From positions 62,001 through 126,000 of the forward strand of contig NZ_JABFAM010000005.1 of assembly GCF_013623775.1 (NCBI RefSeq): a stretch of 64,000 nt of DNA, written 5' to 3'. The position numbers and the translations under genes were made by a program. Of this stretch, positions 58,019-63,167 are shown piece by piece. The notes under the pieces are model-generated. The model ran no database searches. It saw nothing but the letters and a program-made list of their open reading frames with translations, and was not told the origin of the DNA. This DNA is from Rufibacter sp. XAAS-G3-1. GTDB taxonomy: Bacteria; Bacteroidota; Bacteroidia; Cytophagales; Hymenobacteraceae. Numbering within the stretch: the stretch's first letter is position 1; every line of letters starts with the position of its first letter.

Positions 58019-58739
58019 TGCCCGGCCATCTCTCCGTGCCACGTTTTCTTTCGTTTTACGGCAGCCTTGGAAAGGGAATGGTTTCACTCGCCCGCGTCCC
58101 GCGAGGGTGAGCTAAGTAAGTGAACAGAAATAAGTCTACCTTTTCTTCTCCTTGTCCTCCTGAAAGGATCTCGGGGGCGAGCGGTAGTACCGTCCAACCA
58201 AAGCTTTGCTAGTTAGCCCACAAGATCTCTCCAAGATAACAAAATGAGCATTCTGATTTGTCCTGCTACTTACCTTGGGCCTCTGGCCGAGGTGGGGTAT
58301 TTTTTAATAAATTGTGTAGCGGCGAGACGCCGCATGTAGTTCACACTCGCGGGACGCGGGCGAGAGTTGCTGTTTTTAGGCTATTTTAAGAAAAACAGGC
58401 TTAAAATAGTACCCAGGAAAGAAGAAGATTAGATAATAAAACGACGGGCAAACCAAGTGAAAAAGACCATCGTTGTAGAGGTGAATCTGCTATCTCAGTT
58501 GCCGGGAAGGCTGCCTGTTTCTTATGGATAAAATCTCAGAACGAAGTGAAACAAGGACGGGGATTGCGTTCCTAAGCGACAGAAGATAACAGCATTACCA
58601 GGAATAGTACCGGGTGCAGGGCGAAGAAACAGGGAGAAATTTGCGCACTTCCGGCACCGGATCAAAATAAAAAAACCGTACCTTAAGCACTAAAGCAGTC
58701 TTTTAGAGCGTAAGAGAGTACAAAAAGGCCCATGCAGAG
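58019..58739. other. Repeat-rich intergenic region
   Basis: Contains CACTCGCCCGCGTCCCGCGA (58088-58107) whose complement recurs near 58350, a degenerate family C hairpin (58151-58242), an AGCGGCGAGACGCCGC hairpin near 58318, also found at 36532, and a palindrome at about 58372-58410. No gene is supported. Confidence 0.5.
58151..58242. repeat. Family C hairpin element, copy 3 (degenerate)
   Basis: CTTGTCCTCCTGAAAGGATC at one side and CAAGATCTCTCCAAGATAAC at the other, with several mismatches. Confidence 0.55.
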
Positions 58740-59248: not shown

Positions 59249-59402
59249 AGAGCTTGTTTAAATTTCATCTTTGCGCTGCAAATGACCATAAAAAGAACCT
59301 GCATTCGCGGTTGCGTCGCACCGTAGCGCGGCTCCAAAAACGCTTCTGCAGAACCTTTCTCTGGTTAGTTGAGCCAGCAAACCTCAAATTTAAACAAGCT
59401 CT
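59249..59402 (+). repeat. MITE-like module B, copy 3 (perfect 17-bp ends)
   Basis: AGAGCTTGTTTAAATTT at 59249-59265 is exactly complementary to 59386-59402. The inner halves also match those of 40493-40597. No ORF. Confidence 0.9.
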
Positions 59403-59445: not shown

Positions 59446-59609
59446 CTGGTTTCCTGCGGCGGCAGAACGCAGAGCGTTGCCCAGTAGAGCGGAGGAGTGG
59501 CTGGTGCTGTCTGTACGCAGCTGGTGAAACAATTTGTGCCGGGGGCTTGTACACAGGCAAACTTAATGTAAGTTAGAATCTGAGATCAGCGGAAACTCTC
59601 CTCCTCGTA

Positions 59610-59773
59610 AGAGCTTGTTTGAATTTTGGCTTCGTAAGTGAAAACGGCCGGTTAAGGTTCTGCGGAAACCTGTTTTTGAGCCTCGTGGCGGTGCTGCGAA
59701 GGCGATAAAAGCGCGAACGCAGGTTCCCTCTAGGGCCGTTTGCAGCACAGAAGGCAACGTGTAAACATGCTCT
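59610..59773 (+). repeat. MITE-like module B, copy 4
   Basis: AGAGCTTGTTTGAATTTTGG at one end and GTAAACATGCTCT at the other, 164 bp. Inner AAACGGCC and GGCCGTTT are paired as in copy 1 at 14305. Confidence 0.8.
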
Positions 59774-59866
59774 AAAAGAGCACAGCCTTGTGATGTCGCA
59801 CATTGGGGAGGAGAGAAATCAGTAAAGCCGCTACCCAGATTTCCTTTAAGAATCACAGCTGATTAC

Positions 59867-61009
59867 ATGATCCGAAAGACCACCTACGCTGCGGCCAGAA
59901 CCGTAGCGCCTGCTATAGAAATCCATTTTGCCCAGCAACAGGCCGAAGCCCGCCAGCACGGCGAGTTAAATCTGGCCCCCATCCCGTCCGTAAAGATCAT
60001 AGAAGCGTTGATTGACGTGGCTTTCTGGGCGAGCCTGAGAAAAGAAGAAGGACAGTCTCCCAGAATCTCCCTCGCTTTCTTGCCGCCTGAACAAGCCGGT
60101 AAACCACTTTTATTTGCCCAGCGGCTTCCGCTTACCGCCTACAACCTCACCAAGTTGGGGCCGGGCGTAGAACGGGCAGGCATTCACCTGGGCGTGTGGT
60201 TTGAGAAAGGCGACCTGTACATCTGGGGCACCACCCGCGAAATCCTCAGCTTTTGCTTTGTGTTGGATGTTTCTGAGCCGGGTTTGCTGGTGGTAAAGCA
60301 TAGGCGGTTCCATGGGTTTGGCAAGTTCGCGAACGTAGCGGTGCTGAAAGGAGACGTGATCAAGATCATTGATGAGCACAGCGACAGCCTGCCTGATTGC
60401 CCCGAGGTGCTAACGTCTCTGCTGGGGTTCACTAACCCGTCTACCTGGAACGACTCGGTCAATATCTTGGTGCAGCTAGCCGTCTCTATGCGCGCGCACG
60501 GAAATGGCGGCACGCTGCTGGTAGTACCTACCGGCTCAGAAACCTGGCAGGAATCTATCGTAAAACCCATGCAATACGCCCTTTCGCCGGCGTTCTCTGC
60601 CCTAGCCGATTTGATGCGGCAGGAAAAGGAAGACCGCAACCGCAGTATCTGGCAAGGTGCCCTGCGCCGGGAAATTGACGGCGTAGCCGGTCTTACCGCC
60701 ATTGACGGGGCCACCGTCATCAATGACCAGCATGAAGTCCTGGCCTTCGGCACCAAGATTGTGCGGGCCTATGGAAACCAACCCGTAGAGCAGATAGTAG
60801 TCACCGAGCCCGTTCTGGGAAACGAGGCCCTTATCATTCACCCCAGCAACAACGGCGGCACCCGGCACCTCTCCGCCGCCCAGTTTGTCCACGACCAACG
60901 CGACGCCACTGCCTTGGTCGCCTCCCAAGACGGCCGCTTCACCATCTTCAGCTGGTCTCCCTGCGAGATGATGGTACACGCGCATAGGGTAGATACGTTG
61001 CTGTTGTAA
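59867..61009 (+). CDS. DACNV sensor/diadenylate-cyclase-like protein
   Basis: A 380-residue protein matching the DACNV sensor plus DAC-like (DisA_N-related) architecture. The DAC core has the DGA motif at 280-282 (TAIDGATVINDQHEVLAFGTK) and GTRH at 331-334, followed by LSAAQFVHDQRDATALVASQDGR, similar to the GTRHR motif of diadenylate cyclases but with Leu after His. The N-terminal ~230 residues form the sensor region. If active it would make c-di-AMP or a related nucleotide. It lies 84 nt upstream of an HNH nuclease, with a degenerate palindrome between. The family is known from nucleotide-signalling surveys; activity here is inference. Confidence 0.75.
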   Translation: MIRKTTYAAARTVAPAIEIHFAQQQAEARQHGELNLAPIPSVKIIEALIDVAFWASLRKEEGQSPRISLAFLPPEQAGKPLLFAQRLPLTAYNLTKLGPGVERAGIHLGVWFEKGDLYIWGTTREILSFCFVLDVSEPGLLVVKHRRFHGFGKFANVAVLKGDVIKIIDEHSDSLPDCPEVLTSLLGFTNPSTWNDSVNILVQLAVSMRAHGNGGTLLVVPTGSETWQESIVKPMQYALSPAFSALADLMRQEKEDRNRSIWQGALRREIDGVAGLTAIDGATVINDQHEVLAFGTKIVRAYGNQPVEQIVVTEPVLGNEALIIHPSNNGGTRHLSAAQFVHDQRDATALVASQDGRFTIFSWSPCEMMVHAHRVDTLLL

Positions 61010-61092
61010 GGTGTTTTAGGGGTTGTTTTTGGGAAGAATGCTGAAAGTATTTGAGTAGTTATTTGTCTACGGCTGATCTTATTTCTTGATAT

Positions 61093-61866
61093 ATGAAGCA
61101 AGGCCAAAGTCTTTGGACTAGGGAAGAACTAATTTTGGCAATCAATCTGTACTGTAAATTACCCTTCGGAAAACTTCATAGAAATAACCCAGAAGTAATT
61201 CAGTTAGCACACTTGATTGGCAGAACTAGCAATTCTGTTGCTTTCAAGCTGGTAAACTTCGCGAGCTTAGACCCAAGTCTCCAAAAGAGAGGTATCAAAG
61301 GGGCTCAGAACACAAGCAAGTTGGACAGGGAGATTTGGAATCAATTTAATCAGAACTGGGATGAACTGCCTTATGAGAGTGAAAAGGTTAGGGCGAAGTT
61401 TGATCATTCAACAGTAGAGGAGGTCTATCAGATTGATGAAGCCGAGCTTCCGAAAGAGGGGAAGGTGAGAGAACAGATTGTCAAAGTGCGGGTAAACCAA
61501 GCTTTTTTCAGGCGTACTGTTCTTGCGGCATATAATTCTACTTGCTGTATTACCGGCATACAAATTCCCTCTCTGCTAATAGCTGGACATATAAGGCCGT
61601 GGGGAATTGATGAGAAGAATCGGCTGAATCCTAGAAACGGATTAGCCATAAATGCCTTGCATGATAAAGCATTTGAAGCTGGTCTTCTAACAATTACTCC
61701 TGATTACACTGTTAAGATATCCTCTACTCTTAAGGGAAAAGAAATTGCTATTGCCAAGGAAGACTATTTTCTAAAGTATGATAAAGAGAAAATAATCCTG
61801 CCCTCTAAATTCTTGCCAGATAGGAGCTTGCTTGAATACCATAATAATGAAAGGTTCATCCCTTAA
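61093..61866 (+). CDS. HNH endonuclease with N-terminal HTH/SANT-like domain
   Basis: A 257-residue nuclease. The first ~60 residues look like a DNA-binding helix bundle (LWTREELILAINLYCKLPFG, VIQLAHLIGRTSNSVAFKLVN). The HNH domain is at ~135-200, with TCCITG at 150-155, His166, Asn182/187 and His190 (NGLAINALHDKAFE). The C-terminus resembles that of the convergent gene, so the two are paralogous in their nuclease halves. The base composition is more AT-rich than its neighbours, suggesting transfer. Its stop overlaps that of the convergent HNH gene by 11 nt. Confidence 0.87.
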   Translation: MKQGQSLWTREELILAINLYCKLPFGKLHRNNPEVIQLAHLIGRTSNSVAFKLVNFASLDPSLQKRGIKGAQNTSKLDREIWNQFNQNWDELPYESEKVRAKFDHSTVEEVYQIDEAELPKEGKVREQIVKVRVNQAFFRRTVLAAYNSTCCITGIQIPSLLIAGHIRPWGIDEKNRLNPRNGLAINALHDKAFEAGLLTITPDYTVKISSTLKGKEIAIAKEDYFLKYDKEKIILPSKFLPDRSLLEYHNNERFIP

Positions 61867-62809
61867 ACACCATCTCCCGGTGCCAAGTCAAATTCTCCAC
61901 GCTCGGGTAATGGATCGCTCCAAAAGGTAAGTTCAGCCGTTTCCCTTCCAACTTCTTCAAAGCATAGGCATTCTCCTCATCTTCGGCAATGGTGGGCGAA
62001 ACCACTACTTTCAACTGACGGTCTACTGTAATCAAACCCCGGTCAAAAGCGCGGTGCAGATTGGGGCACAAGGCGAGCCCATTGGTTACACGGTCATCGT
62101 TGCTTCGGCTGAAAGGCACAATATGGCAGGCGTCTACCATAGAGAAGCCGTGGGTAGAGATGAGGCGCATGCCGGTAATACAGCAGGTAAAGTTGTAAAC
62201 TTGCGGCACCAGTTTCTTAAATAAGCCGCCTCTCACAAACTGCTGTTCTTCATCAGGTGCAACTTGGGTAATTGTATAGGTGGCCGCACTTTCATTCAAG
62301 ATATAATTCTCCAAGTCATGGAGATAACCTCCTTTCTCTTTGCCATGCTGGTAACTTTGCGCAATGGTGGGGAAGTAACGGGCAAGCAAGGTGTTTCGCA
62401 GGATATTGCGGGTGTCTGGAGCCAGCAGGAGCGGGTAGAGATCCTCGGCGAGATACGCATACTCTACCAAGCCATTCAGCACACTAAAGCTTTTGATGGC
62501 CGAATATACTTCCTTGCCTGGCCAGGTCTTCACGAACCAGAAACCCTCCTTGCCTAAATGGTAAAAGGGCAGATAGAAATCTGGGTTGTGGCCAGTGGTC
62601 ACCAGGAGCGCGAAGTTCTCTTTAAAAATGCCTACCAGTTCTGCCGTGATGAAAATCTTGTTTTCCCGTACTTCACCTTTCTCAAACAGGTCTATCAGGC
62701 TAAGTAGCAACACCGGTTTGTGTGGGGCCGGGCCGTACTTGGTGCCGCCTTGGCGCAAACGGGTGAATTTGTGGAGGTAGAACTTCAACGGATCCGGGGG
62801 AGCAGGCAT
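61856..62809 (-). CDS. HNH endonuclease with SBD-like N-terminal domain
   Basis: A 317-residue nuclease. Residues 1-~160 carry the APHKPVLLLSLIDLFEKG and FYLPFYHLGKEGFWFV signatures seen in sulfur-binding-domain and related type IV restriction enzymes that recognise modified DNA. The HNH domain at ~200-265 has TCCITG (208-213), His229, Asn243/250 and His252 (TNGLALCPNLHRAFDRGL). It may cut phosphorothioate- or methyl-modified DNA, but specificity is not readable from sequence. It converges with the other HNH gene, with overlapping stops. GC is close to the housekeeping genes. Confidence 0.88.
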   Translation of the reverse strand: MPAPPDPLKFYLHKFTRLRQGGTKYGPAPHKPVLLLSLIDLFEKGEVRENKIFITAELVGIFKENFALLVTTGHNPDFYLPFYHLGKEGFWFVKTWPGKEVYSAIKSFSVLNGLVEYAYLAEDLYPLLLAPDTRNILRNTLLARYFPTIAQSYQHGKEKGGYLHDLENYILNESAATYTITQVAPDEEQQFVRGGLFKKLVPQVYNFTCCITGMRLISTHGFSMVDACHIVPFSRSNDDRVTNGLALCPNLHRAFDRGLITVDRQLKVVVSPTIAEDEENAYALKKLEGKRLNLPFGAIHYPSVENLTWHREMVFKG

Positions 62810-62884
62810 GGCAGCTTTTATGTTCAGCCGGAAAGTAAAGGATAATCTGTCTTTTTACAATAACTGTTCCCAGATGATAGCATT

Positions 62885-62920
62885 CGTTTTACAGCGATTT
62901 TTTCGAAAACAGGGCTAAAC
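62885..62920. repeat. Family A palindrome
   Basis: CGTTTTACAGCGATTTT facing AAAACAGGGCTAAAC. Another lies at 63013-63050. Between the HNH gene and tRNA-Phe no protein gene is seen. Confidence 0.65.
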
Positions 62921-63052
62921 TAAGAAGTAAAGCCTCATCCAAATATACACCCCAATAAGATACGTTGCTAGATTGCAAGAAGAGCGCACGTCAAGTCTAA
63001 ACAAAACCTTTCCGTTTCTGCCCTCTTTTCCCCAAAACAGCCCAAAAACAAA

Positions 63053-63091: not shown

Positions 63092-63167
63092 TGGTGGTGA
63101 TGATTGGAATCGAACCAACGACACAAGGATTTTCAGTCCTTTGCTCTACCGACTGAGCTACATCACC
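63092..63167 (-). tRNA. tRNA-Phe (GAA)
   Basis: Minus-strand cloverleaf: acceptor GGTGATG pairs with CATCACC, D-arm GCTC...GAGC, anticodon loop CTGAAAA giving GAA, T-arm with TTCGATT. The discriminator is A, and the CCA end is encoded (76 nt with CCA). A perfect Bacteroidota promoter precedes it and a terminator follows. Confidence 0.97.

What the first reader, a model, noticed from the sequence alone, without database searches (positions are those of the whole stretch)
59867..62809. Predicted nucleotide-cyclase (DACNV) gene beside two HNH nucleases: candidate defence or signalling locus
A DAC-like protein with DGA (280-282) and GTRH (331-334) motifs and a DACNV-type sensor lies 84 nt from an HNH nuclease, which meets a second HNH nuclease tail to tail. 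DAC enzymes with extra sensor domains were predicted in surveys of nucleotide-based conflict systems, so a cyclase that makes a second messenger beside nucleases could be a new effector pairing. Against a tight operon: a palindromic repeat lies between the cyclase and the first HNH gene, and the second nuclease is on the other strand.
Basis: partly seen in the sequence, partly recalled or inferred. Interest (0 to 1): 0.72.

Follow-up and report, generated by a model that had tools for sequence, protein, structure and literature searches.

The report
Core cyclase gene bordering defence hotspot
A widely conserved, probably signalling, nucleotide-cyclase gene happens to form the left edge of a chromosomal slot where Rufibacter bacteria swap different anti-phage restriction systems, so the two nucleases beside it are exchangeable neighbours and not its partners.

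Summary
The genes are real. Window 59867-61009 (+) encodes a 380-aa protein with the Pfam DACNV domain and a C-terminal part whose predicted fold matches diadenylate cyclases (all 50 PDB hits listed). Most ATP-contact positions are conserved, but RHR has become RHL and SEE has become SQD. HNH1 and HNH2 follow, convergent and overlapping by 11 nt. HNH2 carries an N-terminal sulfur-binding domain, like phosphorothioate-dependent type IV restriction enzymes.

The proposed cyclase-nuclease pairing is not supported. DACNV is present in 16/16 Rufibacter and 35/37 same-family genomes. None of 90 DACNV loci outside Rufibacter has an HNH1/2-like gene within about 10 kb. In Rufibacter the slot just 3' of the DACNV stop holds the HNH pair in 8 of 16 genomes, Ssp in 2, Mza in 2, a type IV-like helicase-nuclease plus HNH2 in 1, and no recognised system in 3. 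Between two close relatives, a 2.0-kb segment holding exactly HNH1+HNH2 is replaced by an 11.4-kb Ssp segment; homology breaks 3 nt after the DACNV stop. The slot ends at tRNA-Phe.

Best reading: a core, probably c-di-AMP-making gene beside an ordinary tRNA-proximal restriction hotspot. DAC genes associated with defence (CBASS) are already published.

The parts
59867..61009 (+). DACNV gene, 380 aa: DACNV sensor domain plus C-terminal DAC-fold domain; conserved, nearly always single-copy gene of the family
   Evidence: Pfam PF21751 E=5.6e-35; match in 16/16 same-genus and 35/37 same-family genomes, own one included; median dN/dS 0.15 in Rufibacter
59969..60235 (+). DACNV domain (residues 35-123)
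60452..60988 (+). DAC-fold domain (about residues 196-374)
   Evidence: AlphaFold2 model pLDDT 80.4; the 50 PDB matches listed are DisA/CdaA/DacA/CdaM-type DAC proteins
60506..60520 (+). GALI-like motif GGTLL (residues 214-218)
   Evidence: G214, G215 and L218 invariant in 33 sequences; motif definition from PMC7288161
60704..60712 (+). DGA motif (280-282)
   Evidence: invariant
60857..60868 (+). GTRH motif (331-334), followed by L in place of the second R of RHR
   Evidence: GTRH invariant; RHL, rarely RHM or RHF
60923..60934 (+). SQDG motif (353-356), in the place of (V/I)SEE
   Evidence: invariant
59547..59579 (+). conserved promoter-like element TTG-N19-TAAGTTAG upstream of DACNV
   Evidence: seen in the upstream regions of most Rufibacter DACNV genes; promoter-like hit 59550-59579; function inferred
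61010..63026 (.). exchangeable slot: in this strain it holds HNH1 and HNH2; starts at the DACNV stop
   Evidence: homology to HNH-less G014 stops at +4 nt after the DACNV stop and resumes at +2018
61093..61866 (+). HNH1, 257 aa, McrA-like HNH nuclease (HNH domain at residues 151-201)
   Evidence: Pfam HNH_2 5.8e-9; PADLOC HNH 6.9e-95; 6yex HNH endonuclease 4.8e-10
61856..62809 (-). HNH2, 317 aa, N-terminal sulfur-binding domain (11-146) plus HNH (209-263)
   Evidence: SBD structure 8h0l E=1.3e-17; HNH_2 3.5e-14; NF045808 98.5 bits, below cut-off 180
63092..63167 (-). tRNA-Phe(GAA), right edge of the slot in Rufibacter
   Evidence: found downstream of the slot in the other genomes where it was in reach

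Best explanation
The locus joins two unrelated things. (1) A conserved, vertically inherited gene for a soluble DAC-fold enzyme. Shown: gene, domains, fold, conservation, own conserved upstream element. Inferred: its N-terminal DACNV part senses an unknown ligand or protein and controls a C-terminal DAC domain that, as a face-to-face dimer, joins two ATP into c-di-AMP, as a second cyclase beside the ordinary CdaA/DacA that all 16 genomes also carry. (2) A restriction hotspot in Rufibacter between the stop codon of that gene and tRNA-Phe (shown). In this strain it holds a convergent HNH1-HNH2 cassette. HNH2 is inferred to be a modification-dependent (type IV) endonuclease that reads phosphorothioate or a similar mark through its sulfur-binding domain; HNH1 is inferred to be a McrA-like nuclease. 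The cassette is exchanged as a unit for Ssp, Mza or other restriction systems without change of the cyclase, so the nucleases are most likely not effectors of the cyclase.
For: DACNV in 16/16 Rufibacter and 35/37 family genomes, in at least 445 loci, the best 80 from Rufibacter, Pontibacter, Adhaeribacter, Pedobacter, Mucilaginibacter, Dyadobacter and others; absent from phages and viral contigs. No HNH1/2-like gene in any of 90 DACNV loci outside Rufibacter; few PADLOC matches among 125 DACNV-neighbour proteins outside Rufibacter. Slot contents in the 16 Rufibacter genomes: HNH1+HNH2 8; NUDIX + ResIII/PLD/DUF3427 helicase-nuclease + HNH2 1; Vsr-C5 methylase-MzaBCD 2; SspBCD 2; none of these 3. 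Break within -1 to +17 nt of the DACNV stop in ten comparisons of genomes with different slot contents, while HNH+/HNH+ comparisons run through. HNH1/HNH2 divergence follows DACNV divergence (r=0.77, 0.71): old resident cassette with later replacements. DAC fold; canonical DacA in all 16. A close HNH1 homologue sits on a Hymenobacter plasmid without DACNV within 5 kb.
Against: The first gene of all four recognised slot systems lies in the same direction as DACNV, 28-152 nt downstream, and no terminator was found in the window's gap, so read-through from the DACNV promoter is possible. Cyclase activity is not shown: Pfam DAC is below cut-off, the second Arg of RHR is lost and SEE is SQD. Phosphorothioate dependence of HNH2 is doubtful because the same genome carries SspBCD.
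Confidence: 0.78

Rival explanations
1. A functional defence unit: DACNV makes a second messenger on infection and the product activates HNH1/HNH2, a DAC counterpart of CBASS.
For: Adjacency and same direction of DACNV and HNH1 in 8 of 16 Rufibacter; a CBASS-associated DAC was shown to be needed for phage defence in another system (PMC13092281).
Against: No co-occurrence outside Rufibacter; HNH pair replaced as a unit while DACNV stays; HNH2 already has its own DNA-mark sensor domain; neither nuclease showed a known nucleotide-sensor domain in Pfam.
Confidence: 0.05
2. DACNV is a catalytically weak or dead DAC that binds ATP or c-di-AMP and works as a receptor or regulator rather than as a cyclase.
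For: Second Arg of RHR absent (RHL, rarely RHM or RHF) and SEE changed to SQD throughout the core subgroup; DAC profile below cut-off; canonical DacA always present in Rufibacter.
Against: Positions equivalent by motif to the ATP contacts listed for Listeria CdaA (D71, T102, R103, H104, S122) are invariant and E124 is replaced by Asp; strong conservation over the whole C-terminus.
Confidence: 0.25
3. Defence cassettes are captured behind DACNV because its promoter drives them, so the cyclase gene is a transcriptional platform for the slot.
For: All four recognised cassette types are co-directional with DACNV at 28-152 nt; conserved promoter-like element upstream of DACNV; no terminator in the window's gap.
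Against: Four types in the same direction is not significant (1 in 8 to 1 in 16 by chance); in two of the other three genomes the first gene downstream is reversed; the Ssp cassettes have a TANNTTTG-type promoter-like sequence of their own.
Confidence: 0.1

Closest known systems
DACNV family (Pfam PF21751; NCBI product name 'putative sensor domain DACNV-containing protein')
   Same: Same domain over its full length, well above cut-off; NCBI already uses the name on a Hymenobacter record
   Different: Nothing family-defining; this is an ordinary member of the 380-aa core subgroup. A 441-447-aa divergent subgroup with GTRHR exists
Diadenylate cyclases CdaA/DacA and DisA (Pfam DAC PF02457)
   Same: Predicted fold and order of GALI, DGA, GxRH and Ser-acidic motifs
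   Different: No transmembrane or DNA-binding part found; RHR is RHL, SEE is SQD; below the Pfam cut-off
CBASS-associated DAC systems (DS-2 of DefensePredictor, PMC13092281)
   Same: DAC-type protein near defence genes
   Different: DS-2 has a cGAS-like cyclase and a phospholipase and its DAC is required; here no such genes were found among the neighbours scanned and the defence genes are exchangeable
SBD-HNH (ScoMcrA-like) phosphorothioate-dependent restriction enzymes
   Same: HNH2: N-terminal sulfur-binding domain followed by HNH
   Different: Below the NCBIfam cut-off; shares its genome with an SspBCD modification locus
Defence hotspots at tRNA genes
   Same: Conserved flanks, variable defence content, tRNA at one edge, an integrase in one genome
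   Different: Left edge is the stop codon of a conserved DAC-fold gene

Membership tests
DACNV family PF21751 | Profile match above the curated cut-off | tested here: met
   119.9 bits against 27
Diadenylate cyclase (DAC) | DAC fold | tested here: met
   AlphaFold2 model; the 50 PDB matches listed are DAC proteins, probability 1.00, TM-score by target up to 0.61 for CdaA
Diadenylate cyclase (DAC) | Pfam DAC profile above cut-off | tested here: not met
   15.3 bits against 27
[quoted passage not shown]
   DGA and GTRH invariant, GALI-like GGTLL; second R of RHR lost, SEE replaced by SQD
Diadenylate cyclase (DAC) | Makes c-di-AMP from ATP | not testable with these tools
   needs a biochemical assay
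Cyclic-nucleotide defence system (CBASS or DAC-CBASS) | Conserved genetic linkage of cyclase and effector | tested here: not met
   0 of 90 non-Rufibacter loci; absent or replaced in half of Rufibacter
Cyclic-nucleotide defence system (CBASS or DAC-CBASS) | Effector with a nucleotide-binding sensor domain | tested here: not met
   HNH1/HNH2 show HNH_2 and, in HNH2, a sulfur-binding domain; no known nucleotide-sensor domain found
SBD-HNH type IV restriction enzyme (HNH2) | Sulfur-binding domain plus HNH domain | tested here: met
   8h0l E=1.3e-17 over residues 11-146; HNH_2 over residues 209-263
SBD-HNH type IV restriction enzyme (HNH2) | NCBIfam NF045808 score above cut-off | tested here: not met
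   98.5 bits against 180
SBD-HNH type IV restriction enzyme (HNH2) | Cleaves phosphorothioated DNA | not testable with these tools
   own genome has SspBCD, which makes it doubtful for the Ssp mark
Defence hotspot | Conserved flanks with variable defence gene content | tested here: met
   16 genomes, four recognised system types, breaks at the DACNV stop, tRNA-Phe on the other side

The most novel reading that the evidence does not exclude
The DACNV protein senses phage or stress and, through c-di-AMP or through read-through transcription from its own promoter, controls whichever restriction cassette is parked behind it, so that Rufibacter uses one conserved cyclase gene as a switch for interchangeable defence modules.
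Probability: 0.05. Interest if true: 0.7.

Novelty: new member of a known kind. Interest (0 to 1): 0.25.

Why it matters
It removes a tempting but unsupported cyclase-nuclease pairing and shows by breakpoint comparison that adjacency to defence genes can come from a shared insertion slot. It also marks a Rufibacter slot where modification-making systems (Ssp, Mza) and a putative modification-dependent nuclease pair replace each other. The open question worth testing is what the widespread second cyclase of these bacteria (DACNV, with an altered RHR motif) makes and senses.

Tried and rejected
Palindrome or terminator between DACNV and HNH1: none. DACNV-HNH linkage in other genera: none in 90 loci. 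Defence enrichment next to DACNV outside Rufibacter: 46 PADLOC families at E<=1e-8 from 125 neighbour proteins, each of the 25 shown matched by one protein, several being models of the same family; no control set of distant genes was scanned. Conserved Pedobacter neighbours (DtxR-like, PadR, PspC): ordinary regulators and membrane protein, not taken as partners. Mutual exclusion of Ssp modification and HNH2: looked attractive in the slot, but the own genome has both, so dropped. Profile comparison of DACNV with the single DacA sequence: not significant. Structure of HNH1 from a single sequence: pLDDT 36, discarded. PgpH-type c-di-AMP phosphodiesterase in the own genome: none found. The review of DAC architectures (Galperin 2023) is not held; what I recall of it (that it defined several DAC N-terminal domains and noted CBASS links) is memory except for the CBASS link, quoted in PMC13092281.

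Full report
WHAT IS THERE. The finding's coordinates hold three ORFs: a 380-aa gene at 59867-61009 (+), HNH1 at 61093-61866 (+) and HNH2 at 61856-62809 (-). HNH1 and HNH2 overlap by 11 nt at their stops. The gap between the first two is 83 nt. The first gene has the Pfam DACNV domain (PF21751, E=5.6e-35, residues 35-123), while Pfam DAC reaches only 15.3 bits over residues 328-357, below cut-off. NCBIfam and PADLOC gave no match for it. The 'palindromic repeat' in the gap is a 71% copy of a dispersed 38-nt intergenic repeat, and the gap does not fold better than shuffles (z +1.62).

THE CYCLASE. An AlphaFold2 model from 33 relatives (pLDDT 80.4) matches DAC proteins in the PDB: the 50 matches listed are DisA, CdaA, DacA, DacM/CdaM and a Bacillus cereus DAC protein. 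[quoted passage not shown] In DACNV the corresponding residues D280, T332, R333, H334 and S353 are invariant in 33 sequences and the acidic residue is D355. The second Arg of RHR is lost (RHL, rarely RHM or RHF). I read this as a probably active, diverged diadenylate cyclase (about 0.65), with a dead or receptor-type DAC as the main rival. The mapping onto CdaA residues is by motif, not by a computed structural superposition.

WHO HAS IT. DACNV matches occur in 16 of 16 genomes of the genus (Rufibacter, by the named records) and 35 of 37 genomes of the family, nearly always as one copy. In an even draw from the phylum 11 of 395 have it. A named scan gave at least 445 loci, the best 80 of them from Rufibacter, Pontibacter, Adhaeribacter, Pedobacter, Mucilaginibacter, Dyadobacter, Larkinella, Chitinophaga and others. 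Phage and viral collections gave none, plasmids one distant copy. All 16 Rufibacter also have a canonical DacA. Purifying selection is clear (median dN/dS 0.15 over 88 pairs with dS below 1.5). This is a core gene of its family, not a mobile defence gene.

THE NEIGHBOURS ARE EXCHANGEABLE. In Rufibacter the space after DACNV holds HNH1+HNH2 in 8 of 16 genomes (G000, G001, G002, G004, G005, G006, G009, G015). One (G003) has a NUDIX gene, a split ResIII/PLD/DUF3427 type IV-like nuclease-helicase and HNH2. Two (G010, G013) have Vsr, a C5 methylase and MzaB, MzaC, MzaD. Two (G012, G014) have SspB, SspC, SspD. Three (G007, G008, G011) have none of these (profiles were run on one member of each cassette cluster). 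Comparing close relatives G004 (HNH) and G014 (Ssp), homology of 85.9% runs to 3 nt past the DACNV stop and resumes 1,999 nt later in G004 and 11,389 nt later in G014; the replaced stretch of G004 holds exactly HNH1 and HNH2. In ten comparisons between genomes with different slot contents the left break lies between -1 and +17 nt of the stop, whereas HNH+/HNH+ pairs align through the cassette. Intergenic DNA diverges fast, so in the more distant pairs the exact position is soft; in the G004/G014 pair it is firm because the upstream intergenic regions still align. tRNA-Phe lies beyond the slot in the genomes where it was reached, and a tyrosine integrase sits in one (G005). HNH1 and HNH2 diverge in step with DACNV, so the pair is an old resident that has been replaced in some lineages.

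OUTSIDE RUFIBACTER. None of 90 DACNV loci has an HNH1/2-like gene in the locus. Of 125 different neighbour proteins, PADLOC matches at E<=1e-8 come from few proteins (the table does not name them, and no distant-gene control was scanned). Recurrent Pedobacter neighbours are a DtxR-like regulator, PadR and PspC. A close HNH1 homologue on a Hymenobacter plasmid has no DACNV within 5 kb.

THE NUCLEASES. HNH2 has an N-terminal sulfur-binding domain (SBDHga1, 8h0l, E=1.3e-17; also McrA 5zmm, weakly) and a C-terminal HNH, the layout of phosphorothioate-dependent restriction enzymes, though below the NCBIfam cut-off. HNH1 shares only the HNH part with known structures. A neat story, that Ssp modification and HNH2 exclude each other, fails in this very genome, which carries SspB, SspC and SspD on another contig (SspB and SspD there are named from position and likeness to the slot cassette, only SspC by profile).

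MECHANISM AND VERDICT. Most likely DACNV is a housekeeping signalling cyclase with an unknown input, and HNH1-HNH2 a restriction cassette in a tRNA-proximal hotspot whose left edge is the DACNV stop. A regulatory link through read-through transcription cannot be excluded: the four recognised cassette types are co-directional with DACNV and no terminator was detected in the window's gap. The evidence for it is weak. DAC involvement in defence has been shown elsewhere for a CBASS-associated DAC (PMC13092281), but this locus does not have that linkage.

Noticed in passing
window 59249-59402 and 59608-59775: Two MITE-like repeats of about 155-170 nt (the first with inverted ends), each with at least 40 matching places in the own genome, flank the promoter-like element of DACNV; the second lies in its leader, which is about 290 nt long here against roughly 150 nt in other Rufibacter.
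   Followed up: partly
G000:C16:28203-31316 (L162:7029-12251): The own genome carries SspB-SspC-SspD (DNA phosphorothioation) while HNH2 in the window has a sulfur-binding domain: a possible self-restriction conflict, or HNH2 reads a different mark.
   Followed up: partly
L181:8474-9955 (G010:C24): A third DAC protein (494 aa, DAC 38.7 bits) followed by a DUF4238 gene, with a Cap4-type nuclease gene about 6 kb further on: a candidate DAC in a defence context.
   Followed up: partly
L065:6928-8268, L163:8961-10292, L164:9885-11207: Divergent second DACNV subgroup (441-447 aa) that keeps GTRHR; also without recognisable defence neighbours.
   Followed up: partly
window 58087-58114 / 58337-58364: 28-nt inverted repeat, 93% complementary, 222 nt apart, between the DnaJ-TPR gene and the 91-aa gene.
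   Followed up: no
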